Source: Hyphomicrobiales bacterium
GTDB taxonomy: Bacteria; Pseudomonadota; Alphaproteobacteria; Rhizobiales; Rhizobiaceae
Length of the DNA: 64,000 nt
Reading direction: 5' to 3'
Assembly: GCA_900471815.1 (NCBI GenBank)
Contig: UICE01000009.1
Location: forward strand, 1-64,000
The notes under the pieces were generated by a model. It did not search any database. It was not told the DNA's origin and saw only the letters and a list, made by a program, of their open reading frames with translations. Shown here in pieces: positions 31,410 to 51,215 of the stretch. The position numbers and the translations under genes are program-made. Numbering within the stretch: the first letter of the stretch is position 1; every line of letters begins with the position of its first letter.

Positions 31410-31554
31410 GGATAAACCGCCGATAGAGGGCCACACTGCTGTTTGGTATGCCGAGGGGGTCGGGCCCGCCCTTCTTAGCATAGTAGTTCCATTCAGGTAT
31501 ATTCGCCGTATTTAGCACTATCTTCGCCCGCTTGCTCGTCTCAAGGAATTTCAA
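31387..31554 (-). CDS. Possible small protein overlapping the drmB stop
   Basis: A 55-residue frame from TTG 31554 (MKFLETSKRAKIVLNTANIP, then EWNYYAKKGGPDPLGIPNSS) begins 14 bases inside drmB and ends exactly at the repeated AGTACCGTCA sequence. Its composition is protein-like, but no ribosome site is clear. It could be the 5' remainder of a truncated downstream gene, for instance where drmC would stand, but no DrmC motif is visible. Confidence 0.25.
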   Translation of the reverse strand: MKFLETSKRAKIVLNTANIPEWNYYAKKGGPDPLGIPNSSVALYRRFILSADGRD

Positions 31555-33412
31555 CGCACGCGAAACGCGAGCCAACAACGGTCGGGACAAGGAGTCCGCG
31601 GTCGAGCCGTGTATTACGGGCTTCGCACGATGTCTCCGGTATGAGCAAACACGCATGGCATGCGGCACCATGAAGGTGTCTGTCGTCGTGGTCACCATCG
31701 GGAGAGTGCTCAGCGCAGATTGGATCGTTCGAGCATAACTCCAGTCGCTTCATTGCACGGGTCAGCAGCTCGCCAACACGGTGCGTCATACCGCTGAGCC
31801 CGCCAAGAGTTCCTTGGCCACCGGCCGTAGACGTGTAGATCAGCAGTCCATATCGATCGGCTTGCCCGGCACCGCTGGAATATACACGCTCTTTCAAGGA
31901 TGAGAGCGGGTAGCCGCATTCTAATGAAAGCTCGGACATCAGCGCGTGGGAGAGAGAATGGACGGCCCAGTACGCAATTCCTAAATGGGAAGGAGGTCGA
32001 CCGAACCGTTCGGCGTCGAGCCTTTCCCCCTCTTTCAAGACCAGCGTCCGCTCGCCCACTGCAGCCTGATTGCGCCATAGGTTTATAAAGTCAGGGTTCA
32101 CGTGAAGAAAGATGCCCTCGCCGAACTGCTCTATCGCCGGGAGCCATTCGACGTTCCGAGCAAGGTCAGCTCCGTCAACAGCGAGTTGGATTTCATCCAA
32201 CTCGCTCTCCGCAGCTGTTGGAGGCGGCTCAAGGCGGGTAAACCCATATAGGCAGGTTACTTCTCGAAGCCGATGAACCTTGACGACCCCCGTTAGAAAA
32301 TCCCTCCAAGGCTGATCCAGCTCCAGTTCGTCAATGGACATGGTTTCGGCGAAGAGGTGCGACGCAGGACCGTCGTGTCCAATAAATCGAGCGCCAGACG
32401 CCAGGATGTCGAACTCGGCAATGCGAGGATTTGTAGATGCAGGAGCGTCTCCGGCTTCCTCATCAAGCGCCCTCAAAATGTCTGCGTCTGAAAATTCTGA
32501 AAATGCTTCCTTGGTATGCGGCAAACTGCGAAGGACATCTATGAAGTTTGGCAACGCTCGGATCGAGTCGATGGTCGGTCGATGTTCCTGAACCGTTTGT
32601 CGAACGCGGCTATCCGAATTAGTCAGCGAAATGACCGTGACAGTCTGAGCGAAATAGGTGTTGGTGGCAGACCGAGGTAGAAGGCGCAGATCAATGCCGC
32701 ATTCTTCGTCGTGCAGTCTCTGCGGCTGGAGCCACGGACTTTCTGCGCGACAAGTGCCGAGGAACTTCGGCTTGTAGAGGTCCGCCATGGTCAGCATCGA
32801 ACCGCAGGTGCAGCGGACAGAGATATCCGACGGATCAGAGCTAACGCCACGCTCAACCCAGTACATCGGTTTGCGACAAGCCTCGTCGCCGTTGCGATGA
32901 ACTAGATATCGCCAGCCAATGTCCTGGAGATGTCCTTTTGTGCAGGCGGCGACGAAGCGGATGGGATTCACCTCGCGGCGCTTACCGCGATCATCCTTGT
33001 AGGAAAGCTTCCCACCCTTGGTCACAGTCAGATGGTCAAACTCAACCATCCGTCGGCGCTTCTCCATGTTGGTCGCTGCCATATCGCCATCGCCATCAGA
33101 GGAGTTGCCATCCTCGTCTACGGTAAACCAGCTCGGGAAGAGCAGGACTTCGACACCGGGTGCGCGGTCATCACGCCGCTCCTCGTCTTGTTCTGGCGGC
33201 TGGCGCAGGCCGGAGAACGTCGGGCTTAGCTTGCCGCCCAACTGATCACGAAGAAGGGCAATGAGCCGATCCTCGGCAACTGTCTTCATGTGGGAGCCAT
33301 AGCGCCATCCCTGTAACCCCGACACGATCACGGCCTGATCCGGCAGATCGAGCATAGCGCCTGGGCCATAGGTCAAAAGCAATTGGCTAAAGCTTTGTGT
33401 GATGTCTGCCAT
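31541..33412 (-). CDS. drmB: DISARM protein DrmB (DUF1998 domain)
   Basis: A 623-residue protein. The N-terminus has the family block TYGPGAMLDLPDQAVIVSG (14-32). A cysteine cluster in the middle (CTKGH, CTCGSML, GTCRAES) suggests a zinc site. The DUF1998 domain follows with SLSHALMSELSLECGYPLSS and YGLLIYTSTAGGQGTLGGL, and the end has CSNDPICAEH and CHACLLIPETSCEARN. In DISARM, DrmB binds DrmA and the complex clears incoming unmethylated phage DNA. It starts 11 bases after drmA behind a GGGAAG site, so both are one unit. Confidence 0.88.
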   Translation of the reverse strand: MADITQSFSQLLLTYGPGAMLDLPDQAVIVSGLQGWRYGSHMKTVAEDRLIALLRDQLGGKLSPTFSGLRQPPEQDEERRDDRAPGVEVLLFPSWFTVDEDGNSSDGDGDMAATNMEKRRRMVEFDHLTVTKGGKLSYKDDRGKRREVNPIRFVAACTKGHLQDIGWRYLVHRNGDEACRKPMYWVERGVSSDPSDISVRCTCGSMLTMADLYKPKFLGTCRAESPWLQPQRLHDEECGIDLRLLPRSATNTYFAQTVTVISLTNSDSRVRQTVQEHRPTIDSIRALPNFIDVLRSLPHTKEAFSEFSDADILRALDEEAGDAPASTNPRIAEFDILASGARFIGHDGPASHLFAETMSIDELELDQPWRDFLTGVVKVHRLREVTCLYGFTRLEPPPTAAESELDEIQLAVDGADLARNVEWLPAIEQFGEGIFLHVNPDFINLWRNQAAVGERTLVLKEGERLDAERFGRPPSHLGIAYWAVHSLSHALMSELSLECGYPLSSLKERVYSSGAGQADRYGLLIYTSTAGGQGTLGGLSGMTHRVGELLTRAMKRLELCSNDPICAEHSPDGDHDDRHLHGAACHACLLIPETSCEARNTRLDRGLLVPTVVGSRFACVEIP

Positions 33413-33423
33413 GATTCTTCCCG

Positions 33424-36400
33424 CTACTCGAACATGCGGCCGTCAGGCCTTCTGATCTTCAGTAGCGCTACCGGTTCGGTATCGCGCATCGATCGCGCCG
33501 CGATGAAGAAATTATTTCCGCGTAGGCCCAAGCTGTCTTGAAGAAGCCGCTGGACTGGCTCAGCTTTCGCGTAGACGAAGCGATCCCCGTTCTCCGTCTG
33601 CCTGTCGGCAATCGATATCCACGCATCGCGCAGTTCATCGAGCCGAACTAGGCATCTGTCGACCAATTCTTGCTCGAGCTCTGCCACCGCCATCTTTTCT
33701 TCAACGATTTTGCGGACCTCGGCGTAGGCAGCTGGATTGTCCTTCAGCCGGTCAACGAAATCGTTCCGGCTCAGGTCAGGCTCCACGTGGCGCGCGCCGG
33801 CCACCAGTGTTGCGGCAAGCGCACGGTCGAGAGCTCGCGGAGAGAACGGCGTGACGCTGGTCGCCTCAACAGCGCGATAGAAGCTCATGTGGAAGGCACG
33901 GAACTGTTCGTAATGCGTCCGGTCTCGAGGCTTGTGGATGTTGAGGAGCGTGATGACGAGACCGGGCTTGGAGGCTTCGCGGCCGACGCGGGATGTCGCC
34001 TGAATGTATTCGGCAGCGGTCTTCGGCTGTCCCTGCACGACCATCAAACCGAGGCGGCCGATATCCAGACCCACAGAGATCATGTTGGTGGCCAGTGCGA
34101 CATCGACCGCGTTCTTGTCCAAGACCGGATAGCCAAGCCGTGTGCGTGCCTCCGACACTTGGTCGGTGCTGTAACGCGATGTCAGCTCCTGCACTTCACG
34201 CAGAGTCCGGTCGGCGAACGGCTGGCCGCTTGGCTGTTTGCGAACGCGACTGGTACCGTAGCTGGTGAGGTGCGCCCGCACTTCATCCTCGACGATACGC
34301 CGCGCGCCGCCGAGTTCTCGGAGAGCGTTGAAGTAGCAGAGCGCAGTCAGATATGGGTCGGCAGGATCATTTTCCTTGCCAGTCGAAAGCGCCGCGGCGC
34401 CGGAGAGGATGGTCTGTAACGCGCGAAGATAAACCAGTTTCGGCCCGCGCCCTGGTGACGCGATCCCGGCATAGATGCGCGACGGGGTTTCCCGATCGAC
34501 CGTAGCAAAGAAGGAGTCGTGGCGACTGATGCCCGGAGGTGGGAAGATCGCCGTCTTCGAGCGACCGAAGAGGTTCTTGATCTGGGTTTCCGCACGTCGG
34601 ACCGTGGCCGTGGACGCCACGATCTTCGGGCCACGACGCTCGCCATTGATCTGGCGCGAGGCCAGCAGATCGAATGCCGTCTCGTAGAGGCCAGCGATGG
34701 TGCCGAGCGGCCCGGAGATCAAATGCAATTCGTCCTGGATGATCAGGTCGATAGGCCTCAGTTCCCGTGACATCCGGGTTCCCTCGCTCTCACCGGCACC
34801 GTAGAACCCGGAATAATCCGAGCGTGTGACGTGACCGAAGAATGCCCCAGCACGCCCCTCCCAGGGAACGCTGGCAAACTTGTCGACGGTGGCGATCATG
34901 AAGGCCGGAAGACGACGATAAATCTCATCATCGACGACGACGATCGGCAGCCGATCAGCACCAGAGAACTCGCAGTCCAGATTGTCGCAACGAATATCCA
35001 GGCGTTGCGGCTTCGTGAGGTTCGGGTGGATCTGGAAACTGTTCTTGTTGAAACGCTCACCACACCAGGGGCAGTTCTTCATCGGGACCGGTGCAGGCCC
35101 ATTTCGGCTGCGGTGCTCCGCCAACCAGGCAACGGCTGTACTTGGGTTCTTGTTCTTTGCATCACCGAGCGCGTTGGGGGTCGCGCCACCGCCAACCCAG
35201 AGGCCGATCTCGATGGGCCAGGTGCCGAGCTCGGGAGTGGCCTTTCGCTCCAATTCAAGCGCGCAGACGAGACCGGCCGCGCGTTGCAGCTGGTCGAGTG
35301 TCAGAAGCCGAAGCGTATAACGCATCACGACCGACAGCCCCGCACCTTCAAGGTCGGGATTGGCCAGACGGCGACGGACGATGGCGAAGGCGGCGAGGCC
35401 CAGATAGGCTTCGGTCTTGCCGCCACCTGTCGGAAAGAATAGCAGATCGACAATCGGGCGATCTTCGTGACCGGGGTCAGCCAAGCCGTCGAGGTTGAGA
35501 AGGATGAAGGCAAGCTGGAACAAGCGCCAGGTCGGCGCGCGTTGCGCGGTCAGCGGCTTCTTGTTGTCGGCTGCGGCCCGCTGGCGGTTCGCCCGCGCCA
35601 TCACCTTGTTCATGATGCGGAAGGCTTCGCGGCTCGCCGGGTCATTCACCATACGATCGATGCCGCCTTCGATGCGGCGGCAGGCCCCGCGGATTTTCAC
35701 CAGACAGTCGCGTGCGACATCCTGACGGCGCGCTCCTGAGACGTTGGAAATTAACCCTTCCTGCGCGACGGCCCATTTGGCATATGCCACTGGCAAGGCG
35801 GAAAGTGCGGCCTTCAGGCCGGCAACACTCCCCGCCGCCTTTTCCAGTTCTTCCATGCTCCGCTCCACACCGGGAACTGGAATGTCGGCACCGAGCTTTT
35901 CCACCTCCTGGGTCGGGATGGGATTGGTGAAGACGGTGACGATCTGACCATTCTCGTTAGGCGCGCACCAGTCAGCGGAGGTGTTGTGACCCACTGCAAA
36001 GGAGCAGACATCGCGATAGTGGAGGTCGGCAAGGCGCTCATCGAAATCCTGGGCATCGTAGGATGCACGGTCGTCCCGGGGGGCAAAGCCATCGACGGCA
36101 TGAAGTTCGACGCGGGCCTGGAAGCAGAAGGCGATGTCGCCGAAGCGGCGATATGTTTCGGGGCGTGCGTTTACCAGAAAAACGGAGACTGCCAGAACAT
36201 CGTCCCGGATGCCATCGATACCTGCCGTCTGGGCCGGCCGAATGGTAACCACAAGTTCAAGACCTCCGCCGGGCACCTGCGGAGCCGCACTTTCCGGCAC
36301 GACGATCCGCTGGGGAATACCTTCCTGCAATCTAACCAGATCGATGGTCAGGCGTTCTTCGCGCGGAATCCTGCGCCAATCCAGTGAACTTTTTGGTGGC

Positions 36401-36957
36401 TCCTTCGGGTGCTCACCGGCCTGGACGGCTTTTTCTCTTTCGTCGGGCAGAAACACGGCTTTGTCGAGCGGCGGCTCGGTGACGTAGTCTCCCCAGGTGA
36501 CGCGAGCTTGAAGCGTCTTCGCCGAACGCGGCAGCAACACTGTCAGTCCCAGTGAAGAGGGAACAAAGGAACGCATCGGCGGCCGCTCGCTCGCGCCGTC
36601 ATCGACGGCGCTGCCGGAGCCAGGTGCGCCCTGTTCCATACCCTCGGCCGAGCGCAGCGCATCGAGCTGGGCTTCTGCCTTTTCGTCGTCGGCAGCGCCA
36701 TTTCCGAGAATTTTCTCGGCACGGCGTTCACGGTTGTGCTTGCGGCGGGGGGCGAGAAAGCCGGTCAGGTACCAAGTGGCGGGACTGGTACCGGAAATGA
36801 TCTCCCTGTCGAGATCAGGATCGAGGTCCGGATGCGCTCCGACCAGATCGCGGCGCAACAGGTCCATCAAGCGTTCACGAACTTCGACGGCGGTTGCCGG
36901 CTTGGGGAGGATGCTTAGCGCATCTTGCGACGATGCCGTGGTCGTATTGCTCGACAT
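33424..36957 (-). CDS. drmA: DISARM helicase DrmA
   Basis: A 1177-residue superfamily 2 helicase. Walker A is DLLFFPTGGGKTEAYLG (about residue 505), motif II is IIQDELHLISG (about 740), motif III is VASTATVRRAE (about 780), and the C-terminal helicase half has LATNMISVGLDIGRLG and QATSRVGRE (about 990). A CPWCGERF / CDNLDCEF zinc-binding insertion lies between the halves. This arrangement, beside a DUF1998 partner, identifies DrmA, the DNA-scanning motor of DISARM. ATG 36957 shares a base with the stop of the PIN gene (TAATG), so translation is coupled to it; a 16-residue longer frame is rejected. Confidence 0.9.
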   Translation of the reverse strand: MSSNTTTASSQDALSILPKPATAVEVRERLMDLLRRDLVGAHPDLDPDLDREIISGTSPATWYLTGFLAPRRKHNRERRAEKILGNGAADDEKAEAQLDALRSAEGMEQGAPGSGSAVDDGASERPPMRSFVPSSLGLTVLLPRSAKTLQARVTWGDYVTEPPLDKAVFLPDEREKAVQAGEHPKEPPKSSLDWRRIPREERLTIDLVRLQEGIPQRIVVPESAAPQVPGGGLELVVTIRPAQTAGIDGIRDDVLAVSVFLVNARPETYRRFGDIAFCFQARVELHAVDGFAPRDDRASYDAQDFDERLADLHYRDVCSFAVGHNTSADWCAPNENGQIVTVFTNPIPTQEVEKLGADIPVPGVERSMEELEKAAGSVAGLKAALSALPVAYAKWAVAQEGLISNVSGARRQDVARDCLVKIRGACRRIEGGIDRMVNDPASREAFRIMNKVMARANRQRAAADNKKPLTAQRAPTWRLFQLAFILLNLDGLADPGHEDRPIVDLLFFPTGGGKTEAYLGLAAFAIVRRRLANPDLEGAGLSVVMRYTLRLLTLDQLQRAAGLVCALELERKATPELGTWPIEIGLWVGGGATPNALGDAKNKNPSTAVAWLAEHRSRNGPAPVPMKNCPWCGERFNKNSFQIHPNLTKPQRLDIRCDNLDCEFSGADRLPIVVVDDEIYRRLPAFMIATVDKFASVPWEGRAGAFFGHVTRSDYSGFYGAGESEGTRMSRELRPIDLIIQDELHLISGPLGTIAGLYETAFDLLASRQINGERRGPKIVASTATVRRAETQIKNLFGRSKTAIFPPPGISRHDSFFATVDRETPSRIYAGIASPGRGPKLVYLRALQTILSGAAALSTGKENDPADPYLTALCYFNALRELGGARRIVEDEVRAHLTSYGTSRVRKQPSGQPFADRTLREVQELTSRYSTDQVSEARTRLGYPVLDKNAVDVALATNMISVGLDIGRLGLMVVQGQPKTAAEYIQATSRVGREASKPGLVITLLNIHKPRDRTHYEQFRAFHMSFYRAVEATSVTPFSPRALDRALAATLVAGARHVEPDLSRNDFVDRLKDNPAAYAEVRKIVEEKMAVAELEQELVDRCLVRLDELRDAWISIADRQTENGDRFVYAKAEPVQRLLQDSLGLRGNNFFIAARSMRDTEPVALLKIRRPDGRMFE

Positions 36958-37466
36958 TACTTCCCCTCGAACTGCGCAAGTTGCGCCAACGTCTGATCCA
37001 GCCACTTTTGTGTATAGGGGGCCCTAAGGTCCAGCCTTAGCTTGAAGCCGACGTCGCCGAGCAATCTCTCAAGCGACACCAGACGTTCCCGGAGGCCAAG
37101 GCGAATGCCGATCCGGAGACTGGCCTTGTCCGGGCCACACAACACCCAAGCATCTTTGCGGCTGATAGCATGTGCCCAGAGCGCGCGTTCGCCATCGTCG
37201 AGGTAAGCGATTGACGGGTCTATTGTCACCGCCTGCGCGCGAGCAACATCATGAACGGCATGAACCGCCGCGAGCGTTTTGGTCAGAACTTCACTGTCAA
37301 TCTGCTCTTCTGGTCGACGCTGCTGGTAGCCGGTCTGCGTCTCGATGAAACAGTCGCCGACGGTTTCAACGGCGTAGCCACCACAGAGCGCTTTCCACGC
37401 GGAAACGCGCCAACACTCGATGATGACATTGGTGTCAACGAGAACAGGACCATGGTGTCGTGCCAT
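36957..37466 (-). CDS. PIN-domain protein embedded in the DISARM operon
   Basis: A 169-residue PIN-like nuclease. The N-terminal acidic strand is VLVDTNVIIECWR (Asp11, Asn13, Glu17), a middle acidic group is YLDDGERALWAHA (Asp90, Asp91, Glu93), and a C-terminal GPDKASLR (Asp113) completes the usual acidic set. PIN proteins are metal-dependent RNases, frequent as toxins. It lies 6 bases after the XRE-ImmA/IrrE gene and is translationally coupled to drmA. The pair with the regulator resembles a toxin with its regulator, but within DISARM it may be an effector. A GAGG site precedes ATG. Confidence 0.7.
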   Translation of the reverse strand: MARHHGPVLVDTNVIIECWRVSAWKALCGGYAVETVGDCFIETQTGYQQRRPEEQIDSEVLTKTLAAVHAVHDVARAQAVTIDPSIAYLDDGERALWAHAISRKDAWVLCGPDKASLRIGIRLGLRERLVSLERLLGDVGFKLRLDLRAPYTQKWLDQTLAQLAQFEGK

Positions 37467-37472
37467 GCAGCC

Positions 37473-38579
37473 TCACAGCTCGTAAGGCGCGTCAACGCCA
37501 TGAGATACGAACAGCTCGGCAAGATCGTCAATGGCGAGACCGAGGATCGAGGCAATCCGGCGCATCGAGGTTTGGCCTTCATCCAAAGCGGCAGCAACGA
37601 TCTTAACAAATGGCTTAGAGAAAAGTGGGGGCACTTCCGGCTTACCAGGTTTCGCCTGGCCATTGTTTCTCAGGCCTGCGTCGGAAATTGCGTCACTCTG
37701 TGCTCGACTCAGACGGCCCATACCGACTAGCCGCCAACGTAGCGCCTGGGATGTCACCAGCAACTCGTCTGCCACCTCATTGAGGTGATCGACTAATCTT
37801 TCGTCGGTCAGACTTCTCCATTCACCAAACCGATCCAGCACTGCTCCCGGCATCAGGAGCGCCGACGCAAAATTGTCCGCCAGTTGCTCAACGCGACTGC
37901 GCTTCTTCGGCATGGCCTCCTCGATGTGTTCGGGCGGCATTTTCTCCCACGTCAGGATATGAAAGAGCTCGTGAGCGAGATCGAAATGACGTCGCCCGGT
38001 GATCTCATTGCGATTGATGAGCACGACATCCAGTTCGGGCAGGCGACAGGCCGCACCCGAAACACCTTCGATCGGGTCGACCATCAGGACCAGAATGCCT
38101 AGCTTTTCTGCCATGACATCAGCCAGCCGGCGCGCAGGCACTTCTCCAAGATTGCATTCAGCGGCGAAACGTTCGCCAGCAGCACTCGCATCATCAAAAC
38201 TCGACTGCTTCGAGAGACTGAGTGCTGGCCGCATGAGTGGAGGCTTGTGGCCGGTCTGGCGGGCAAGGGTACGGAATGCCGCGATCAAACGACCCGCCGA
38301 CTCTTCATAACCGCGCAGCCGGTTGCCATCGACCCCCGTCTGTCGCCAAGAGAACCGACCTTCGCCAGCCAGCAGAAAGGGATCAGTGAAATAATCGATC
38401 GACACGCCGAAGACTTGGGCGGCACGCAACAGTTCGTCCGCAGCGACCTTGCGATCGCCCGTTTCGATAGCCGACAAAGTTTGGCGGTCCTTGAAACCGA
38501 ATTGCTCGGCCAAGTCTTCCTGCGACAGTCTACGCTGTTCGCGGAGCGATTTGATGCGTGCGCCGATGGTAGTGGTCAT
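37473..38579 (-). CDS. XRE-family regulator with ImmA/IrrE metallopeptidase domain
   Basis: A 368-residue protein. An XRE helix-turn-helix covers residues 5-62 (IKSLREQRRLSQEDLAEQFG... DRQTLSAIETG). An ImmA/IrrE (DUF955) peptidase domain follows with the zinc motif HELFH (203-207) and the downstream EQLADNFASALLMP block holding the probable third ligand Glu. Fused regulators of this type often repress their own promoter and lose grip by cleavage or induction under DNA damage or phage infection. GGAGTATTTC lies before ATG 38579. A perfect inverted repeat just upstream is its likely operator. It is the first gene of an inner unit running through PIN, drmA and drmB. Confidence 0.85.
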   Translation of the reverse strand: MTTTIGARIKSLREQRRLSQEDLAEQFGFKDRQTLSAIETGDRKVAADELLRAAQVFGVSIDYFTDPFLLAGEGRFSWRQTGVDGNRLRGYEESAGRLIAAFRTLARQTGHKPPLMRPALSLSKQSSFDDASAAGERFAAECNLGEVPARRLADVMAEKLGILVLMVDPIEGVSGAACRLPELDVVLINRNEITGRRHFDLAHELFHILTWEKMPPEHIEEAMPKKRSRVEQLADNFASALLMPGAVLDRFGEWRSLTDERLVDHLNEVADELLVTSQALRWRLVGMGRLSRAQSDAISDAGLRNNGQAKPGKPEVPPLFSKPFVKIVAAALDEGQTSMRRIASILGLAIDDLAELFVSHGVDAPYEL

Positions 38580-38601
38580 GAAATACTCCTTGGCCTCATG
38601 T

Positions 38602-38629
38602 AGTCTTGCAAAATCATTATTGCAAGACT
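38602..38629. promoter_or_regulatory. Inverted repeat upstream of the XRE-ImmA/IrrE gene (candidate operator)
   Basis: AGTCTTGCAA (38602-38611) and TTGCAAGACT (38620-38629) form a perfect 10-bp inverted repeat with an 8-base spacer, 23 bases upstream of the XRE gene start, with a third half-like TCTTGCGAAG just beyond. On the minus strand TTGCAA and TACATG at 17-base spacing could be a weak promoter within it. It sits in the only gap (72 bases) of the DISARM gene chain. Confidence 0.6.
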
Positions 38630-38651
38630 TTCTTGCGAAGTCGATTCCGCA

Positions 38652-39299
38652 TTACGCCACTTTTCCGGCTTCAATCAGACGAGTTGCAACGTCTTCGTTG
38701 TAATATGTGGGCGCTGCGGCAAGTGCCATGCAAAATCGATCCGCGAGCAACGACCCGATGCGTCTCATGTCCGCTTCGTAAAAATGGAGATCGAGTTTTC
38801 GATTGGAGTTCTGCGTTTCATTGAATTGGACGCGAAAACCGCTCAGCCAAGTTTGGTCGCCGCGATTGCCTGTCTTGTGGAGCGGTCGGATCGTACGGCC
38901 GTCTCCATGTCCAAATGCGTCGCGTAACCACTTGACGAAGTTCTCAACTGGCATGTCCTTGAAGTCGCCGTTGATCGGATTCGCTGCAATTCCTTCATGC
39001 TCGACTAACACGATAAATCGAGGCTCTTGGAGCGGCAAAGACCATGGCTGCGAGGTGATGACTTCGTTCCCGAGGAGTTGCCTAAATTTGTGGGCGGCCT
39101 GATCAGCGGCATCAGCGAAGTTTACGTCGCCGGCGTTGTTCCCTGCCACCCAGCCCCGGTTCTTCGTCCATAACAATACCGTACTGAAAAGCGCAAAGGT
39201 CTGGGTCACGTTGAACTTTGTTTCGGGCGGTTGGTCCAGCATCGCCTTTAGCCGATTGATGATAGCCCATTCGACCTGCGCATTTGTTATCCCACCCAT
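38652..39299 (-). CDS. HEPN-like protein in the DISARM operon
   Basis: A 215-residue mostly helical protein with FVKWLRDAFGHGDGRTIRP near residues 121-139; Arg126 and His131 give the Rx4H signature of HEPN RNases, in the setting seen in pEK499_p136-type HEPN proteins. The segment ILVEHEGI is replaced by FIVLVEHEGIAA, otherwise unassigned. It begins directly after the drmMI stop (TAA then ATG), with GGAG further up, so it is co-transcribed with drmD and drmMI. HEPN RNases act as abortive-infection effectors or toxins. Assignment rests on one short motif and helical context. Confidence 0.6.
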   Translation of the reverse strand: MGGITNAQVEWAIINRLKAMLDQPPETKFNVTQTFALFSTVLLWTKNRGWVAGNNAGDVNFADAADQAAHKFRQLLGNEVITSQPWSLPLQEPRFIVLVEHEGIAANPINGDFKDMPVENFVKWLRDAFGHGDGRTIRPLHKTGNRGDQTWLSGFRVQFNETQNSNRKLDLHFYEADMRRIGSLLADRFCMALAAAPTYYNEDVATRLIEAGKVA

Positions 39300-42200
39300 T
39301 TAGCCGGCATCTCCCTCAATAACGTCCTCGTCGGCCATCGCAGAGCCTTTCGGTGCAATACCCAGCCGAACCTCTTCCGCATGCCGCTCGGCGTTCAGTG
39401 CGAGCAAGCGGGCCAGCACACGATCACGGCCTTCAGCGTTCCAAAAGTAGCGGCCCTGATATGTGTGGTCGTCCTCCGTCTTGTCGGTCAAGAATTCGGA
39501 ACGAAGTTCATCCGCAAGGTCGTGCCATCCATAGGCTCGCAAAACGGCGCGATCCAATTCCTCGTGCAGGATTCGCAAGCGTTCGACGGGGCCGCTTAAC
39601 TCACTAACCAGGTGGAAGCGGTTGTAGGTTTTAGTCATTCCTTCATTCGCATCAACCATAAGCCTCGCCCGTTGGTCATGGTAATTCTCACCTGTTGTTA
39701 AACACTCCGTATCCGTCAAAAAATTAAGAGGAAAAGGGAATGTCTCTAAACAATCCGACGCAGTATAGCGAACCCTATCCTCGAGTGTCGAAGAGAAGAA
39801 GCGCGCCCAAGTTTCATGTACACGAGATTGTAGCACCGAGAAGGTGGATGCGTGATTTTCTGCAACAACGATTACTGTCTTAATGAAAACTGGTCCAGTA
39901 TTTGCAAAACGAAAAGCTATGTGCGGGCTCACTTCAGCGTGTACTATGCATCGATCAATTTTTGAAAGTTGCTTGTAAAGCTCGGGCCTGGGCGCTTGAT
40001 ACGCCCACCATTTTTTCTTCAGCGGCTTGTTGTTGCTGTTTTCAGGTAGCCTTTCCCTTTCAGGCCTGACCTTTTCGCTTATGATTTTGAATATGTTTGG
40101 CAGTCGATTTAAGTCTTCCTCCGAACTTATCGCGGAAGTGTCGATTATCCACTTTGAGGGCTTTAGGTCGGGGTCTTGATTTAGGTCTATGCCGCCCACC
40201 ATACGGAAAGCGAACCTTGCCTCCTTTTCGGAATCCAGGATTGGTTGAAGCGAAGATATCGGATTAGCCTTGGCATCGGCGTCGTCGAAAACAAAGCCCT
40301 GGCCGTATGGCTGTGAACCCTTAGAAAAATAGGGAGTGGCGGTAAGGCGATGAGGCGAACTGTCAAAGTTTCCGGGGACTAGATAGGCGCTTATCCTGTC
40401 AACGGTGGCTCCATTATACCGCACTCGGACATGTGGCCCTTTTCGAATATGCACCACGGATACTATTACTGCCGCCTCTCCGGGCCATGGCAAACGTTTT
40501 TGAACCTCATAGATGGTTCCTTTGCTTGCCAATATCGGTTGAAGAGAGCTTTCACGCGTATCTCCCTGCGAGATTGTTTTTGTCCCGATCAACCCGAGGC
40601 AGCCTCCATCTCTCAGAACCGAATAGGCTCGTCTGAAAAAGAATCCCACCAGATCGCATTGATGTTTGGAATCGGTGAACCGATTCAAAGCAAACTGGAA
40701 ATACGTGGCACCATTAATCTGAGATGTTCGTGATCCGCTCAAGAAAGGCGGATTTCCAACAATTGCATCGAACCCCGAATTGTTGCGTCCGAATACCTCC
40801 GGAAACTCAATCTCCCAATGAAACGATCGCCAGCCTTGCTCAGCCCGGAAGGCCTGCGCCTTCGCCTCCAGCAGTTCCCAGCGTGGCTGAAGATGGCCGC
40901 CGATCCAGCTTTCGACCTTGGCCCGCTCCATCTCACGCGCCTTCGGCTTATCAGCGGCGAAGAAGGCTGCAATGACGGCATCGCCCACGATGCGTGCCGG
41001 CTCCACCTCCGTTTCGACACGGCGGAAGCGAGATTCCTGCACGGCACGCGTAATATCGTCCGGCGCATTCCGGATCGCCTCGCGTCCTTCCTGGGCTCGG
41101 TCTACTGCCTCCTTGATCATACTGCGGAAAAGCGGCAGGCCTAGCTTCGAGGCGTCCCAATGGGCGGCCTCTATCTCGTGGCGCGTCAAGCCAACGAGGC
41201 TATCACCGCTCTTGATAGCGTGGTCGAGGAAGGTGAATTCGTGATCCCGCGCCAGAGTCGCCAGCCAAAGCGACAGACGCGCCAAGTCCACCGCCATCGG
41301 GTTGCGGTCAACGCCATAGAGGCATTTCTGGGCGACCAGACGCCGGGCATGCAGCGCCTCATCCTCATCCGGCGGAATGGTTGGCTTTTCCGCCCCATAC
41401 ATATTCCACGCCTGCTCCAGCCGTGCACCGAGCTGGCGGCAGGCTTCCACCAGGAATGCACCAGAACCGCATGCCGGATCGCAGACCTTGAGCGACAACA
41501 CGGCCTCGGGCGAGGCCTTGGAGCCGATTCGCTCGAAGGCTGGCTCCAACGCATGGCGAACGATCGGCTCTGTCAGCGAACGTGGCGTGTAGTGCGAACC
41601 TGACCTTCGGCGTTCCTCGGTCGGCTGCAGATATGGCGTCCCTAGACCGATGGCGGACCCGTCAGGCGTGGCGCGAAGGTCGATCAGGCCACCGAAGGCA
41701 TCGAGTAGCGCCGGGACATCGGCTGCCTCCTTTACGCCCTTCGCCTGTTTGGCCGACAACTTGATGGCGCGATCCTTCAGCCATTTCTGACGGTCATTCG
41801 GCTTCTGGGCGAGAAGCGTATCAAGGCCGATGAAGGTCGGCAGCTTCTTTTCGTCGCGCAGCGCAATCATCTGCTCTTCAGCTCGCAGAGCGGTGAAGCC
41901 CATCACCGTCTCGTATACCGAACCAATGCTTTCGACATCGAGGGAGCGATAGGACAGACGTTCGCGGATTTTCTCGCCCGACAGGCTTCGAGCTTCCACC
42001 GTCATCAGCCCATGCAGAATGCGCAGGATACAGCCATCCGAAATCGGCAGGACCTTCGCGTCATCCTTGGTGCTGCCCTTGTCTCGCCCTTCGAGGAACG
42101 GGAAGACGTTGGGATCGAACAGCTTGCCGCCTCGGCGGGCGACCCAATCGCCATGGCCTTCATGAATGATGCGGAAGACGGCGAGAAGCTGACCCCAGCC

Positions 42201-43247
42201 GCCGCGGCGCTCGTCCATCGTATCCGGATTAAGCGCTTCGTCGGTGAGAAGCTTGGCGTACAGTGTCTTGATCGAATAGCCCCCCTCCCACAGGGTCTTC
42301 AATTGCAGATCGGGCGACGAGGGCAAGAGGTCGCGATCTTCCGCGTAAAGCAGGAAAACGAGTCGCATCAGGCAGGTGAGCAGGCCTTCGTAGAGATGAT
42401 GCGACTCCGTTTCTGCTAACCCTTCGATGCGTTCCAGATCAGCCTGGTGAACACCGCGCAACAGTTCGTGCAGCGCGCCGAGAACCTGTCCCGACAGCTT
42501 TTCCGAAACCTCGTTCTGGGCTTCCCGCGACGCTTTGAGAACCGGACGAAGCCGCTTGTCGGGAGCGCCGGTGAACAGCGCGTTGCGACCGAGGCAAAGC
42601 TTGAGGCCAGCCAGCATGGGCCGTCCTTCGACCCGCCCGAGGGCGGCCAGCGGCCAGGATATCCAGCCTGCCGTTTCCCCGCGCGGCGCATAAACAAGAC
42701 GCAGAGTGCCCCGTGCGACGAGCAGACCGACGCCGACGCCGGTTTCACGCAGCAGGCGTTCCAGCCGCTGGTGCGGGCTTGCTTCCCATTCGCTATCGCC
42801 GAACTGGCCTCGACCATCGGCATCCAGGCTCGAATGGACTGAGACCAGCATCTGCGCCGGAACGCCCTCTTCCGTCACGTCGTTCCAGAGAACGACCATG
42901 TCCGGTGTGAGCAGGGTTTCATGTTCGGGAACCACTCGTGTCAGATCGACAGACACGGATGGGCCCGCTGGACTGCCGGCGACCAGCTTGGCGGGCCAAT
43001 TGAGCACAGTCTCAAGGAAGCTCCAGGTATTGCGCAGCACGAAGAACTTGTCGTCCTCTCGCTGGGCTTCAGGAGACAGCTCCAGCGCTTCGGCAACCGC
43101 CTCGGTGTCCAGAGGCGTCTGTCGGATCGGTGTCAGGCCCTTGTCCCGGAGAACGCTGGGTCCAACAACCAGACCTTCGGGCTGAAGGTAATTCAGCCAT
43201 TCCGTGGTTTCATCTGCACGTGCATAAAAATTCATGGGACTGCTCAA
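39300..43247 (-). CDS. drmMI: DISARM class 1 adenine methyltransferase DrmMI
   Basis: A 1315-residue N6-adenine DNA methyltransferase of the Eco57I/type IIG-like group. The AdoMet motif VCDPACGSGAFLVEACRQLG is at about residue 590, the substrate motif is VGNPPFLSGSR at about 833, and a specificity-like region fills the C-terminal part. Its size and place directly after the SNF2 helicase match DrmMI, which marks host DNA so that DISARM spares it. It overlaps drmD by ATGA. Confidence 0.87.
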   Translation of the reverse strand: MSSPMNFYARADETTEWLNYLQPEGLVVGPSVLRDKGLTPIRQTPLDTEAVAEALELSPEAQREDDKFFVLRNTWSFLETVLNWPAKLVAGSPAGPSVSVDLTRVVPEHETLLTPDMVVLWNDVTEEGVPAQMLVSVHSSLDADGRGQFGDSEWEASPHQRLERLLRETGVGVGLLVARGTLRLVYAPRGETAGWISWPLAALGRVEGRPMLAGLKLCLGRNALFTGAPDKRLRPVLKASREAQNEVSEKLSGQVLGALHELLRGVHQADLERIEGLAETESHHLYEGLLTCLMRLVFLLYAEDRDLLPSSPDLQLKTLWEGGYSIKTLYAKLLTDEALNPDTMDERRGGWGQLLAVFRIIHEGHGDWVARRGGKLFDPNVFPFLEGRDKGSTKDDAKVLPISDGCILRILHGLMTVEARSLSGEKIRERLSYRSLDVESIGSVYETVMGFTALRAEEQMIALRDEKKLPTFIGLDTLLAQKPNDRQKWLKDRAIKLSAKQAKGVKEAADVPALLDAFGGLIDLRATPDGSAIGLGTPYLQPTEERRRSGSHYTPRSLTEPIVRHALEPAFERIGSKASPEAVLSLKVCDPACGSGAFLVEACRQLGARLEQAWNMYGAEKPTIPPDEDEALHARRLVAQKCLYGVDRNPMAVDLARLSLWLATLARDHEFTFLDHAIKSGDSLVGLTRHEIEAAHWDASKLGLPLFRSMIKEAVDRAQEGREAIRNAPDDITRAVQESRFRRVETEVEPARIVGDAVIAAFFAADKPKAREMERAKVESWIGGHLQPRWELLEAKAQAFRAEQGWRSFHWEIEFPEVFGRNNSGFDAIVGNPPFLSGSRTSQINGATYFQFALNRFTDSKHQCDLVGFFFRRAYSVLRDGGCLGLIGTKTISQGDTRESSLQPILASKGTIYEVQKRLPWPGEAAVIVSVVHIRKGPHVRVRYNGATVDRISAYLVPGNFDSSPHRLTATPYFSKGSQPYGQGFVFDDADAKANPISSLQPILDSEKEARFAFRMVGGIDLNQDPDLKPSKWIIDTSAISSEEDLNRLPNIFKIISEKVRPERERLPENSNNKPLKKKWWAYQAPRPELYKQLSKIDRCIVHAEVSPHIAFRFANTGPVFIKTVIVVAENHASTFSVLQSRVHETWARFFSSTLEDRVRYTASDCLETFPFPLNFLTDTECLTTGENYHDQRARLMVDANEGMTKTYNRFHLVSELSGPVERLRILHEELDRAVLRAYGWHDLADELRSEFLTDKTEDDHTYQGRYFWNAEGRDRVLARLLALNAERHAEEVRLGIAPKGSAMADEDVIEGDAG

Positions 43248-46200
43248 TTCGTCGCGGGCCAGAGATAGACGATGCCGAGCGGCTCCAACTGCCGCGCCTT
43301 CACTTCATATCCGTCCTTGACCTTCTGGGGTTCGGTATCGAGGTCTCCTTGTAGGCGAAGCAGTTTCTGATCCCAGGTACGGCGATCAGCCTCCATCTGC
43401 CGCATCTCCTTTTCCGACTGCTGCCGCTGCTCCTCCGTCGAAAAGTCGAAAGCGAACTGGTCTATCGGCTTCTTCTCACGCATCGCCTCGCGCACCTTTT
43501 GAATCTGACGCGTGAGCAAATCGGCCATCGCCTCCGCCTCGCGGCGACCGTTCTCAGTGAGCTCTGTCAAAGCCGCCTTTTCCGAGGCTTCGGCGCGGGT
43601 ATCCAAGTATGGTCTGAGGTCGCGAATATCGAGTTCTACAGTTTTTTCAAGACGATCGACGACGCTCTGGATCGGCGTGCGCCCTGTGCGCAAGGCATCA
43701 TCCAACTGGGCGATGGTCGTCATTTCGCCAGCTTCGGCGAACGGCGACAGAGGAGCCTCATCTCGGCGAACATCGCGCCAGGCGGCGGTGATGGGGATGA
43801 TTTCTTCATGCAGCCGGCGCGCACCGGGACCGAACAGCGACAGCCGACCAATCAAGACGACACGCGGTTGCGCGCCAGGGCCGATGATGGCGGTAACCCT
43901 GCCGATATTGGAGCGGAAGCCTTGCGACGAGAACCGGGAGATGAGCCGCTTGACCAGACGGTGCTCCAGATGGAGCTGGACCACGTCCTGTGGCTCTGGC
44001 TGCCCCTCCTTTACATAGGGAGGTTCAAAGACGAGACCGCGAACCGGTGTTTTTTGCCTCCACCGCTCCCGTTCATAGGGATGTCCGGGACGCCCCGGAC
44101 GCAGTTCGTCAAAGAGCGTTGCCCAACTGCGATCCTTTGCGAAAGCCGAATGGTTCGGATCAAGCGCCAGAGCCTCGGGCACGCTGAAGTGGCCAGGCGA
44201 CAGGGACGCATGATTGTCTTTCAAGGCAATCTCAACCACCTGCCGGATTTCGGCTCCATCGACGCCGACGCGCTTACGTGCCTGCTCAAGCAGGCGCTGA
44301 AGTCGTTCCTGCTCTTCCTTCAACCGGCCCAGACGTTTTTCCTGTTCGTCGCCGAGTTCCTTTTCTGCGGTCGTGACCTGGGTCGAGTTTTCGGCATCAA
44401 TCTCGGCGGAGATACGTTCCGCTTCGCCACGGCGGATACCGTCTCGTGACAGGCGCTTCTCAATGGTCTGACGAAGCACCTCACCGGAGGCACCAAGCTC
44501 CTTTCGGATGACCTCGGTCTTGCGCACCAGGGCATCAAGAACACGGTCCTCCTCACGCTGGGTGTAAAAGAAGTAGCTGCAATTCACGGTCTTCGAAGGC
44601 TGTAACTTTCGGTCAATTCGGCCATTTCGCTGTTCCAAACGAGAGGGGTTCCACGGCAGATCGACGTGGATCAGGTCATGGCATCGCGCCTGTAGATTTA
44701 GGCCTTCCCGTGCTGCATCCGTACAGACCAGAATGCGCACCGGCTCCTGATCAAACGGCGCATTGAAGGCAATCTTGATACGGTCACGCTCCTCAAGGCT
44801 GGTCTGACCAGTGAACACAAGGATGCGGCCGTCGAGGTCAATCTTGTTGCGGCTTCGCTTGAGAAGGCCTTCCCTCAATCGATCCACGAGCCAGCGACGC
44901 GTATCGTCCCATTCGGTGAACAGAATGAGACGACGATCACGCCATTGGTATGCGCCATCCAGCATCTCGGTCTCGGCCCAATCCAGGACCGCCTCTATGC
45001 GACCGTCAGGACCGTCCTTCGCGGGACTGGAAATTGCCAGCATTTGATCGACATGGGCAATTGCAGCATCAATATCCCCGAGCTCTGAGCGCGCTTCGAC
45101 CGTCGCCATATCGATGAGATCGTTGTCTTCGGCCAGATCAATGACCTCGTCTCCAGCGACAACGGCTTCCTCGCGCTTGCGATTGAGCGTCTTGCGATGT
45201 GTCCTCAATGTTCTGTCGAATGCAGCAATCGAGGAGAACAGACGTTGCTGGAGATTAGCAAACAGGAAACGCGCCCGCGAGCCGCCGCTGGATGACGACC
45301 GGTATTCGTCCAGCATTGCTGCTAGCGTGAGCTCAGGGGCGTTGGCAGGCAAGTTCTCAATTTTGATCGGCTTGACGATGCGCTCTGGGAAAGGCTGTCC
45401 CAAAAGTCGAAGGTCCTCTTTCAGTCGGCGAACCATGACTGGTTCCAGTTCCTTCGCATCGACGTTAATGCCTCTGGTGAAGCGTTGCGGGTCCAGGATT
45501 TCCAGAAGCGTCGCGAAAGAGTTCGAATGGCCATTATGCGGCGTCGCCGACAGAAAAAGGCGATGTTCGAAGCGACCCGCGATCTGTCGTACGGCGCGGG
45601 TCATCTGGCTTTCGGTTGCCCAAACGGTACCAGATGAAGGTGCCGCGTGGTGGGCTTCATCGAGAATCAGCAGAGACCTCGCACGGAACTCGCCCAGCAG
45701 GTCACGAAGCCCCGACATGTAGGTCTCGTCTGACAACACGCTGTGAGAAACCAGGAACCGTGAACCCACACTCCAAGGGTTGGCGGAGAAGCCTCGCGTG
45801 CGACGCGTCTCCAGCAAATATTCGCGGTCTACGATCGTGAAATCCAAACCGAATTTCTGCGACAGCTCGTCCTGCCATTGAAGTAGCATCGACGCGGGGG
45901 CTGCAACGACAACGATTTCGACCCTTCGTCTGAGGAGAAGTTCTCTAACGATCAACCCCGCCTCAACCGTTTTACCTAGACCGACATCGTCAGCGATGAG
46001 CAGGTTCACTCGGGGCAAGTCTAAGGCTTTGGCCAAAGGAAGCAATTGATAAGCATCGAGGCGGATACCCGCCCGAAACGGGGCTTGAAACAGCTTGCGA
46101 TCGGCCGCTGACGCGGTACGCCATTCAGTTGCCCTCAGAAACGCACCGAGGCGCTCCGGCCCCTCAAACTTGGTCTGAAACAGCGCTGACCAATCATTGG

Positions 46201-46408
46201 GATCAATAACCTGTTGATCGACTTCTGACCCGAGGGTAACCCGAAGAGCTTCACCCTGCGCATCGTCCTCAACTGATATGAGATCGAGGAAAGGTATTGT
46301 TCCAAGCCTACCACTCTGTTCAACGACCCAGCTCTTCGAACGGATTCGCACAAACGTTCCGGGCAATAAATTGTTGTGAGAGTCAGTGATGGTTTTAATG
46401 TTGTTCAA
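43244..46408 (-). CDS. drmD: DISARM class 1 SNF2-like helicase DrmD
   Basis: A 1054-residue SNF2-type helicase: Walker A ADDVGLGKTVEAGL (about residue 143), motif II LLILDEAHHAAP (about 249), motif III FLSATPHNGHSNS (about 288) and motif VI LEQRNGRIDR (about 596). A coiled-coil-rich stretch with many Glu and Arg follows (about 640-730). This is the class 1 marker of DISARM and lies first in the operon, as in described class 1 loci. TTG 46408 is the start, with GAGGG six bases upstream. It overlaps drmMI by ATGA. Confidence 0.87.
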   Translation of the reverse strand: MNNIKTITDSHNNLLPGTFVRIRSKSWVVEQSGRLGTIPFLDLISVEDDAQGEALRVTLGSEVDQQVIDPNDWSALFQTKFEGPERLGAFLRATEWRTASAADRKLFQAPFRAGIRLDAYQLLPLAKALDLPRVNLLIADDVGLGKTVEAGLIVRELLLRRRVEIVVVAAPASMLLQWQDELSQKFGLDFTIVDREYLLETRRTRGFSANPWSVGSRFLVSHSVLSDETYMSGLRDLLGEFRARSLLILDEAHHAAPSSGTVWATESQMTRAVRQIAGRFEHRLFLSATPHNGHSNSFATLLEILDPQRFTRGINVDAKELEPVMVRRLKEDLRLLGQPFPERIVKPIKIENLPANAPELTLAAMLDEYRSSSSGGSRARFLFANLQQRLFSSIAAFDRTLRTHRKTLNRKREEAVVAGDEVIDLAEDNDLIDMATVEARSELGDIDAAIAHVDQMLAISSPAKDGPDGRIEAVLDWAETEMLDGAYQWRDRRLILFTEWDDTRRWLVDRLREGLLKRSRNKIDLDGRILVFTGQTSLEERDRIKIAFNAPFDQEPVRILVCTDAAREGLNLQARCHDLIHVDLPWNPSRLEQRNGRIDRKLQPSKTVNCSYFFYTQREEDRVLDALVRKTEVIRKELGASGEVLRQTIEKRLSRDGIRRGEAERISAEIDAENSTQVTTAEKELGDEQEKRLGRLKEEQERLQRLLEQARKRVGVDGAEIRQVVEIALKDNHASLSPGHFSVPEALALDPNHSAFAKDRSWATLFDELRPGRPGHPYERERWRQKTPVRGLVFEPPYVKEGQPEPQDVVQLHLEHRLVKRLISRFSSQGFRSNIGRVTAIIGPGAQPRVVLIGRLSLFGPGARRLHEEIIPITAAWRDVRRDEAPLSPFAEAGEMTTIAQLDDALRTGRTPIQSVVDRLEKTVELDIRDLRPYLDTRAEASEKAALTELTENGRREAEAMADLLTRQIQKVREAMREKKPIDQFAFDFSTEEQRQQSEKEMRQMEADRRTWDQKLLRLQGDLDTEPQKVKDGYEVKARQLEPLGIVYLWPATN

Positions 46409-46847: not shown

Positions 46848-47390
46848 ATGCGCTTTGTAAAGACCCCTGTTGCCGCGCAGCTTACGGGGCTCTCGACAGT
46901 AACCCTGCGAGAGTGGACGAGTCGACGCGCCCTCATTCCAGCCGACCTTCCGCCGAAGGGAAAAGGCTCGGCGGCTGGCTTCACATGGCAAACCATTCTG
47001 CTGCTCCGTATCGCGGTATTGCTGCGTGAGCGTTTTCATTTTGAGCTTCAGCCGCATCAAAACCTGTTTGCCAGTCTCAAAGCGGGTTTCCAGCGCACCT
47101 CCTTCATCGCTCTTTGGGGTAAGTCACTTATCCTCCAAGGCGAAAACGGTTGGTCTCTTGTAGAAGATGAAGCCGGCCCTCCACTGGCTGAAGATGCGGT
47201 CGTGCTTCGCCTGCAACCTCATCTTGAGGCTTTGTCGGTTGGCTTCTCGCTACCCCACCCCACCAAGTCGTTGGGACAACTAGAATTGTTCCCCCCACGG
47301 TCGATTGCGACACCTCCAAGTGAGAACGCCGCTGCTGCACCTGTCAAACCTCATCATGCGGCAGTGCACGCGCGCCGGAGGTCAGCTTGA
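46848..47390 (+). CDS. MerR-like helix-turn-helix protein heading a methyltransferase operon
   Basis: A 180-residue protein with an N-terminal MerR-type winged-helix pattern: KTPVAAQLTGLSTVTLREWT (5-24), then SRRALIPADLPP and a wing-like KGSAAGFTWQTILLLRIAVL. Residues 60-180 carry no recognised domain and the tail is Pro/Ala-rich. Its stop overlaps the TTG of the methyltransferase (TTGA). A perfect 13-bp dyad lies immediately upstream. It likely controls expression of the methylase and nuclease, as a controller protein would. Confidence 0.65.
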   Translation: MRFVKTPVAAQLTGLSTVTLREWTSRRALIPADLPPKGKGSAAGFTWQTILLLRIAVLLRERFHFELQPHQNLFASLKAGFQRTSFIALWGKSLILQGENGWSLVEDEAGPPLAEDAVVLRLQPHLEALSVGFSLPHPTKSLGQLELFPPRSIATPPSENAAAAPVKPHHAAVHARRRSA

Positions 47391-51146: not shown

Positions 51147-51215
51147 CGGCTTGCTGTCGTCCGGCTAGATCACCCTCACGCGGGGCTAAGCGTCTCGTTC
51201 CTTCAATCATGCCCC

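What the first reader, a model, noticed from the sequence alone, without database searches (positions are those of the whole stretch)
31541..46408. Class 1 DISARM operon carrying an embedded HEPN / XRE-ImmA-IrrE / PIN cassette
Seen: drmD and drmMI overlap, then a HEPN-like gene starts directly after drmMI, then an XRE-ImmA/IrrE gene, a PIN gene and drmA are linked by gaps of 6 bases or an overlap, ending in drmB. Known: class 1 DISARM consists of drmD, drmMI, drmA, drmB and drmC. Inference: three extra genes, two of them RNase-like, have become part of the system, so it may pair DNA exclusion with an RNase-based shutdown under a damage-responsive regulator.
Basis: partly seen in the sequence, partly recalled or inferred. 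Interest (0 to 1): 0.72.

Follow-up and report, generated by a model that had tools for sequence, protein, structure and literature searches.

The report
Toxin-like regulator pair inside DISARM operon
In one lineage of a bacterial anti-phage system called DISARM, a two-gene module that looks like a toxin and its controlling repressor sits, with its own DNA control site, directly in front of the two core defence genes, so the same switch probably governs both; a third extra gene beside it is a separate, swappable part.

Summary
The operon is real: a class 1 DISARM without drmC (drmD, drmMI, HEPN-like, XRE-ImmA, PIN, drmA, drmB). The three extra genes are not one cassette. XRE-ImmA and PIN form a conserved pair (adjacent in 85 of 86 loci examined) found also where no drmA follows (48 of 86). 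In 38 of 86 it stands before drmA, mostly with a 4- or 1-base PIN/drmA overlap. So XRE-PIN-drmA-drmB is probably a separately controlled unit. When loci are drawn by drmA rather than by PIN, 6 of 7 drmA genes of 50% identity or more in an order-level sample carry the pair and 0 of 9 below. PIN has a VapC-like predicted fold and conserved acids. The HEPN-like gene comes and goes; its fold is unproven. Best reading: a predicted Xre-COG2856/PIN toxin-antitoxin module adopted as switch and second-tier RNase of DISARM. Toxicity, repression and damage sensing are inferred. Six searches showed no description of it in print.

The parts
43244..46408 (-). drmD, SNF2-like helicase (1054 aa, TTG start)
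   Evidence: NCBIfam NF038317 984 bits, cut-off 610; PADLOC DrmD
39300..43247 (-). drmMI, MmeI/Eco57I-like adenine methyltransferase (1315 aa)
   Evidence: PADLOC DrmMI 1141 bits; Eco57I and MmeI domains
38652..39299 (-). HEPN-like ORF (215 aa) with invariant R126-x4-H131; accessory, exchangeable; starts on the base after the drmMI stop
   Evidence: homologues in 7 other pair loci; fold not confirmed
38602..38629 (.). Predicted operator: perfect inverted repeat AGTCTTGCAA-n8-TTGCAAGACT in the 72-base gap before XRE
   Evidence: conserved before XRE in 77 of 78 loci; profile
38631..38637 (-). Third half-site CGCAAGA next to the palindrome
   Evidence: in 71 aligned sites G, C and A of GCAA are the letter in 65, 65 and 61, the last A in 37
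37473..38579 (-). XRE-ImmA/IrrE protein (368 aa): Cro/C1 HTH plus M78 peptidase domain with HExxH; predicted autorepressor and antitoxin
   Evidence: Pfam HTH_3 and Peptidase_M78; H203, E204, H207 in 76, 76 and 77 of 77
36957..37466 (-). PIN-like predicted RNase toxin (169 aa)
   Evidence: AF2 pLDDT 93; Foldseek to P. horikoshii VapC4 5h4h E 3.1e-4, prob 1.00; conserved acids
33424..36957 (-). drmA helicase (1177 aa from the ATG overlapping the PIN stop)
   Evidence: NCBIfam NF038325 1112 bits, cut-off 950; start read
31541..33412 (-). drmB (DrmB family, MZB domain)
   Evidence: NCBIfam NF038324 511 bits, cut-off 240; MZB

Best explanation
A toxin-antitoxin-like pair of the Xre-COG2856/PIN type has become a regular part of one, mainly alphaproteobacterial, class 1 DISARM lineage. 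It stands, with its own operator, directly before drmA. Shown: gene order, operator conservation, conserved active-site residues, predicted PIN fold, co-inheritance with drmA. Inferred: the XRE-ImmA protein represses the XRE-PIN-drmA-drmB unit by binding the palindrome and holds the PIN RNase in check. When its ImmA domain is triggered (ssDNA or another sign of infection, by analogy with CapH+CapP and PprI-DdrO) or when the protein is lost, repression ends, DrmAB rises and PIN may be freed. drmD-drmMI(-HEPN) has no such operator and is probably expressed on its own, so methylation would precede the restriction arm. PIN would then be a fallback RNase that stops the cell if the DrmAB arm or the repressor is lost. 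The HEPN-like gene is a separate optional add-on of the first unit.
For: Adjacency: XRE next to PIN in 85 of 86 loci, the exception cut by the contig end. PIN-drmA spacing -4 in 22, -1 in 4, +5 in 4, +8 and +41 in one each of 38; the other 6 have a broken or decayed drmA. Operator: 77 of 78 at 3 of 14 mismatches or fewer, against 1.6% of 1560 shuffles, 1.5% of 780 random windows and 2 of 19 drmD upstreams; present with DISARM (33 of 34) and without (44 of 44). It is the only site with 0-1 mismatches in the 4.6-Mb genome. Separate unit: 8 of 30 loci have at least one predicted reverse-strand ORF between drmMI and XRE in a mechanical ORF list, and a reverse DUF2188 gene is annotated there in L033 and L034. 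PIN acids D11, E42, D90, E93 in 33 of 33 DISARM rows and 76-78 of 78 overall; HExxH kept. VapC-like fold. The DISARM label needs 4 changes on the XRE tree, shuffled mean 25. XRE and PIN distances follow DrmA, r 0.90 and 0.88, 0 of 999 permutations. Drawn by drmA: pair in 6 of 7 loci at 50% identity or more.
Against: No experiment: toxicity, repression, protease activity and any effect on phage are untested. The lineage also has pair-less members: P. marcusii L129 and Sphingomonas L131 with intact-looking junctions, L130 with another ORF there, and L157/L181, whose drmD looks broken; so the pair is not essential. In 48 of 86 loci no drmA follows the pair, so it may be a selfish addiction module. 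Some PIN genes are broken (ORF under 140 aa in 8 of 86: L061, L062, L078 and the five Mesorhizobium loci; L062 and L078 lie near a contig end). Correlated distances could reflect linkage on mobile DNA, and the loci are not independent samples. The motif was read off the window and four plasmid loci before the test. The promoter itself is unresolved: a simple scan gave a sigma-70-like match on the - strand at 38644-38616 overlapping the palindrome, with 0.7 expected by chance in the stretch. It predicted no terminator in the HEPN-XRE gap, so read-through from drmMI is possible.
Confidence: 0.58

Rival explanations
1. Passenger addiction module: XRE-PIN only stabilises the DISARM operon or its plasmid by post-segregational killing and plays no part in defence or its control.
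For: No drmA follows the pair in 48 of 86 loci; the five loci found first are on plasmids. Type II TA pairs commonly do this (established knowledge).
Against: A tail-to-head overlap with drmA kept across a whole lineage, an operator at the head of the unit that holds drmA, and clustering on the tree go beyond what addiction needs.
Confidence: 0.2
2. Establishment timer: XRE-ImmA works like a controller protein of restriction-modification systems, delaying drmAB until drmMI has methylated the new host; PIN is a minor part.
For: The operator separates drmMI from drmAB, and the 19 drmD upstreams tested lack a good site. Controller proteins with this role are mentioned in PMC13373217 (passage seen).
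Against: The same operator stands before pairs without drmA (44 of 44), where no drmMI waits, so it evolved for the pair. A timer does not explain the kept PIN active site or the kept HExxH.
Confidence: 0.12
3. PIN is the DISARM nuclease, replacing the phospholipase-D nuclease DrmC, and acts on DNA or RNA handed over by DrmAB.
For: Of 34 pair loci only L033 matches the drmC queries, and only through its own upstream PLD gene; 10 of 20 pair-less loci match, 7 of these being sources of the queries. Limits: L045 and L101 have no drmB match, and L048, L049, L052, L076 hold under 700 bases after drmB.
Against: Ten of the 20 pair-less loci also lack drmC, seven of them with DrmA close to the pair lineage (L129-L132, L148, L149, L181), so drmC absence does not depend on PIN. 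PIN occurs without any DrmA.
Confidence: 0.07
4. Three unrelated insertions with no functional meaning, or an annotation artefact.
For: The HEPN-like gene does come and go.
Against: Pair, operator and overlap recur in many species, and XRE-PIN follow drmA.
Confidence: 0.03

Closest known systems
Class 1 DISARM (drmD, drmMI, drmA, drmB, drmC)
   Same: All core genes but drmC, in the usual order; DrmD, DrmA and DrmB over curated cut-offs.
   Different: XRE-ImmA/PIN and a HEPN-like gene stand between drmMI and drmA; drmC absent; a predicted second control site precedes drmA.
Xre-COG2856 fusion with PIN, a predicted type II toxin-antitoxin system (Makarova 2009, PMC2701414; passages seen)
   Same: Xre-Zn-peptidase fusion gene in one predicted operon with a PIN gene; the passages predict a toxin-antitoxin role and name phage and plasmid carriers.
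   Different: Joined by overlap to drmA; a conserved three-half-site operator, reported here; this PIN is too divergent for a significant Pfam PIN call in most members (4 of 34 match PF01850, best E 0.0016).
CapH+CapP and CapW/BrxR regulators of immune operons (PMC13373217, passages seen)
   Same: A repressor, in CapH+CapP with a protease, encoded beside an immune operon; the passage names DISARM among operons with such regulators.
   Different: Here HTH and peptidase are one protein and the second gene is a PIN RNase, so the regulator is also a toxin-antitoxin-like pair; it sits inside the operon.
[quoted passage not shown]
   Same: A toxin-antitoxin module nested in a DNA-targeting defence operon with a dedicated repressor.
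   Different: Different toxin, host system and regulator; here the antitoxin-like protein itself is the predicted repressor of the host operon.

Membership tests
Class 1 DISARM | drmD, drmMI, drmA and drmB together | tested here: met
   curated cut-offs passed for DrmD, DrmA, DrmB; DrmMI by PADLOC.
Class 1 DISARM | drmC (PLD nuclease) | tested here: not met
   No match in the operon or 6.5 kb after drmB. DrmC is said to be dispensable and often missing from annotated operons (PMC9142583, passage), so this does not exclude membership.
Xre-COG2856/PIN toxin-antitoxin | Xre HTH fused to M78 peptidase, followed by a PIN gene, as a mobile pair | tested here: met
   85 of 86 adjacent; no drmA after it in 48 of 86.
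Xre-COG2856/PIN toxin-antitoxin | PIN fold and acidic active site | tested here: met
   Predicted fold and residue conservation.
Xre-COG2856/PIN toxin-antitoxin | Toxicity neutralised by the partner | not testable with these tools
   Needs expression assays.
CapH+CapP-type damage regulators | Repressor plus ssDNA-activated metallopeptidase controlling an adjacent immune operon | tested here: inconclusive
   PADLOC capP 58 bits and capH 29 bits, RmrA better at 80; predicted operator present; ssDNA response untested.
HEPN ribonucleases | R-x4-6-H motif in an all-helical fold | tested here: inconclusive
   Motif in 9 of 9; model pLDDT 76 with helices and a beta insert; best PDB match E 0.97; no HEPN match in Pfam. 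The motif as a HEPN mark is recalled knowledge.

The most novel reading that the evidence does not exclude
The drmMI-drmA junction of class 1 DISARM is a socket into which different self-contained shut-down modules are plugged (XRE-ImmA/PIN; an AAA ATPase with a DUF4435 protein resembling PARIS; an MqsA antitoxin with a SecB chaperone), so that the DNA-exclusion arm is guarded: if DrmAB or its repressor is disabled by a phage, an RNA- or growth-targeting effector is released.
Probability: 0.22. Interest if true: 0.8.

Novelty: new variant of a known kind. Interest (0 to 1): 0.56.

Why it matters
If true, it gives DISARM a built-in switch and a second line of defence, and shows how a free-living toxin-antitoxin pair becomes the control unit of an immune operon. 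The conserved 24-base site makes the idea directly testable, and it points to a junction where other defence modules may be nested.

Tried and rejected
One cassette of three genes: rejected, because HEPN and XRE-PIN have different distributions. Operator also before drmD: rejected for the 19 loci tested, 2 at 3 mismatches and none better. A wider regulon in the own genome: no other site with 0-1 mismatches; 30 sites with 2 mismatches against 9 for the reversed pattern, an excess I did not follow up. A second PIN copy in the genome: none at E 0.01. HEPN by family or fold: nothing found. Neighbours of pairs without drmA: mixed ORFs, no common one seen by eye (not tested by clustering). PIN and HEPN against PDB sequences: nothing useful. 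PIN as replacement of DrmC: kept only as a weak rival. G+C content of the extra genes (53-58%) does not stand out from drmD, drmMI and drmB (57%; drmA 61.5%), so it neither shows nor excludes recent entry.

Rows dropped before counts: L102-L105 (near-copies of L101); L055, L070, L073 (under 130 bases before XRE), leaving 78 of 85; PIN rows under 140 aa and XRE rows under 320 aa, leaving 78 and 77; all but 16 loci with six full-length genes; DrmA under 1000 aa. One search kept 80 of 114 relatives. Of 53 plasmid records with a drmA match I looked at 21. G545 has drmA cut by the contig end and cannot be scored.

Full report
What is there. On the - strand of the window a class 1 DISARM operon runs drmD, drmMI, HEPN-like, XRE-ImmA, PIN, drmA, drmB. 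DrmD, DrmA and DrmB pass the curated NCBIfam cut-offs and DrmMI has 1141 bits in PADLOC. No drmC was found. drmMI and the HEPN-like gene abut, XRE and PIN are 6 bases apart, and the PIN stop shares one base with the drmA start. They hold a perfect inverted repeat, AGTCTTGCAA-n8-TTGCAAGACT, found once in the window and never in 100 shuffles.

The pair. A search with an alignment of six PIN proteins gave 114 relatives in the species-level genome collection, of which 80 were kept. With the window and five plasmid loci I examined 86. An XRE-ImmA gene stands directly before PIN in 85 of 86, gap -4 to 16 bases; the contig of L075 begins at PIN. In 38 of 86 a drmA match follows: 34 of 80 genome contigs, 3 of 5 plasmid loci and the window. 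PIN and drmA overlap by 4 bases in 22, by 1 in 4, and are 5 apart in 4, 8 in one and 41 in one; the remaining six are five near-identical Mesorhizobium loci with a decayed drmA and a 112-residue PIN, and L076 with a broken drmA. In 48 of 86 no drmA match was found (44 of these hold at least 1500 bases downstream; L110 has a drmB-like match some 8.5 kb away on the other strand), so the pair also lives without DISARM.

The operator. Within 120 bases before XRE, TCTTGCA-n10/11-TGCAAGA with at most 3 of 14 mismatches occurs in 77 of 78 loci (29 perfect, 33 with one mismatch), in 33 of 34 with DISARM and 44 of 44 without. Controls: 1.6% of 1560 dinucleotide shuffles, 1.5% of 780 random windows from the same loci (some of which may fall on the real site), and 2 of 19 drmD upstream regions, both at 3 mismatches. 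The motif had been read from the window and plasmid loci first, and the loci are related, so the percentages are not probabilities. The one miss, L071, has a shortened XRE (241 aa). The profile of 71 aligned sites shows a third half-site, GCAA, 5 bases before the palindrome, and a TTATAT-like stretch just after it. In the host genome only the DISARM copy has 0 or 1 mismatches. The site thus belongs to the pair, whether or not drmA follows. Because the pair overlaps drmA, the site sits at the head of XRE-PIN-drmA-drmB. In 8 of 30 loci with drmMI on the contig a mechanical ORF list shows a reverse-strand ORF between drmMI and XRE (L033, L040, L046, L048, L049, L050, L054, L059), some of which may be spurious; a reverse DUF2188 gene is annotated there in L033 and L034. 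That speaks for two transcription units in those loci. The exact promoter is not resolved.

The proteins. The PIN model (33 sequences, pLDDT 93, pTM 0.87) matches PIN proteins of Pyrococcus, VapC4 among them (best E 1.9e-4; VapC4 5h4h 3.1e-4, prob 1.00). D11, E42, D90, E93 and D113 are kept in 76-78 of 78 rows; in DISARM rows the first four in 33 of 33 and D113 in 32 of 33. XRE-ImmA keeps HExxH in 76-77 of 77 and E231 in 76 of 77. So neither looks inactivated in the DISARM loci that have full-length copies. PIN is broken or short in 8 of 86 loci, five of them the Mesorhizobium remnants. The HEPN-like protein has an R-x4-H motif in 9 of 9 homologues, but its model (8 sequences, pLDDT 76) finds no solved fold (best E 0.97) and no HEPN family in Pfam. 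HEPN remains a motif-based label.

History. On the XRE tree (77 rows, quick method) the DISARM label needs 4 changes against a shuffled mean of 25; well supported branches force at least 2. Across 16 loci with six full-length genes, XRE and PIN distances follow those of DrmA (r 0.90 and 0.88; 0 of 999 permutations), less tightly than drmD and drmB do (0.99). On a DrmA tree of 52 rows the pair needs 4 changes, shuffled mean 16.6, but pair rows were mostly found through PIN, so the sample is biased towards them. Loci drawn through drmA instead: in 397 genomes of the order there are 16 drmA-like matches at E 1e-100 or better in 15 genomes; the pair is in 6 of 7 with 50% identity or more (window included) and 0 of 9 below, which may include other DrmA kinds. 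In 398 genomes of the phylum, 3 of 11 matching genomes have it, all above 50%; one further match above 50%, G545, is cut by the contig end. In 385 of the class, the window alone of 8 matching genomes has it. So the pair marks one DrmA lineage and is sometimes lacking even there: L157 at 71% identity and plasmids L129, L130 and L131 have none.

The HEPN-like gene. It lies after drmMI in 8 of 30 pair loci with drmMI on the contig, and in 4 of 6 pair loci of the order sample. In 397 genomes it occurs in 5, four times in this place; the fifth is near repABC-type genes. A distant relative (28-35%) sits in a type I restriction operon of Salipiger abyssi pPABY8. The nearest relatives of the window (Rhizobium L038, L039; S. 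meliloti L032) have 91%, 89% and 92% identical XRE but an unrelated gene instead, a 162-residue protein with a hydrophobic tail in L039 and L032 (in L038 its frame is damaged). DNA similarity stops 39-45 bases before the end of drmMI and resumes 12-14 bases after the HEPN-like stop. The same comparison shows drmMI changed in its recognition region (20-55% identity over residues 841-1140, against over 90% for most of the first 780 residues in L038). HEPN is therefore an exchangeable add-on.

The junction in other class 1 loci. Of 21 plasmid loci inspected out of 53 with a drmA match, 19 have drmMI upstream of drmA: 3 carry the pair, 8 have no gene between (four with a 4-base overlap), 8 have other genes. 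Two cyanobacterial ones have an AAA ATPase and a second gene which in L133 is DUF4435-like (AriA 91 bits, PtuA 107, AriB 25), recalling PARIS; in L136 the second gene is annotated only as hypothetical. One (Thiodictyon) is annotated with an MqsA antitoxin and SecB, beside an IS element. Others look like unrelated insertions (XisH/XisI, YfbU). This is a lead for a socket, not a proof.

How it probably works. XRE-ImmA as autorepressor and antitoxin, PIN as RNase, with drmAB under the same switch and drmD-drmMI outside it, is the reading that needs fewest extra assumptions. Makarova 2009 predicted Xre-COG2856 fusions with PIN as toxin-antitoxin systems (PMC2701414, passages). CapH+CapP, a repressor and a ssDNA-activated protease, control immune operons, and a 2026 paper lists DISARM among operons with such regulators (PMC13373217, passages). 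A toxin-antitoxin system embedded in a type I restriction system under a dedicated repressor has been described (PMC12255303, passages). What the trigger is, whether PIN kills, and whether either changes phage resistance are not known. The statement that ssDNA or damage is the trigger is analogy.

Literature. Searches for DISARM with drmMI and drmA (3 papers), with PIN domain and XRE (none), with toxin-antitoxin, operon and embedded, with nested, with PIN and restriction-modification (12 of 19 listed) and with HEPN gave no listing that describes this arrangement. I read section 8 and passages of PMC12458937 and passages of PMC2701414, PMC9142583, PMC13373217 and PMC12255303; all other papers I saw as listings only. 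The library lacks most subscription papers, the original DISARM paper probably among them (it was not in the listings).

Noticed in passing
window 24776-30905 (-): A zacABC-like three-gene set (PADLOC ZacA 266, ZacB 342, ZacC 821 bits) follows drmB directly: two predicted defence systems in a row.
   Followed up: partly
window 46848-53096: Upstream on the + strand a predicted type IIG/N6 methyltransferase (47387-50467) with a 180-residue ORF of no known family before it, and a HipA_C protein (51216-53096, -): the DISARM lies in a defence-island-like stretch.
   Followed up: partly
window drmMI 39300-43247, about residues 841-1200: The recognition region of DrmMI is swapped relative to L038 and L039 while drmD and drmA stay 93-95% identical: a likely specificity change within the operon.
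   Followed up: partly
L133:7802-9785, L136:7857-9784: AAA_15 ATPase plus DUF4435-like gene, PARIS-like, between drmMI and drmA in Nostocales plasmids; L133 scored, L136 by annotation and position only.
   Followed up: partly
L134:8359-9836: A small ORF, MqsA antitoxin and SecB chaperone (annotation) before drmA in Thiodictyon, like a toxin-antitoxin-chaperone set; no PADLOC match.
   Followed up: partly
L101-L105 about 8883-13066: Near-identical Mesorhizobium remnants: XRE-ImmA full length, PIN shortened to 112 aa, drmA decayed. The repressor seems kept longest.
   Followed up: no
L043: Contig labelled Streptomyces sp. AcH 505 carries an alphaproteobacterial-type DISARM with the pair; possibly contamination.
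   Followed up: no
L033:10582-10785, L034:8571-8774, L046:7712-7927, L050:8582-8797: A small DUF2188 gene in reverse between drmMI and XRE recurs in several loci; role unknown.
   Followed up: no
own genome: 30 sites with 2 mismatches to the operator half-site pattern, against 9 for the reversed pattern; the excess is unexplained.
   Followed up: no
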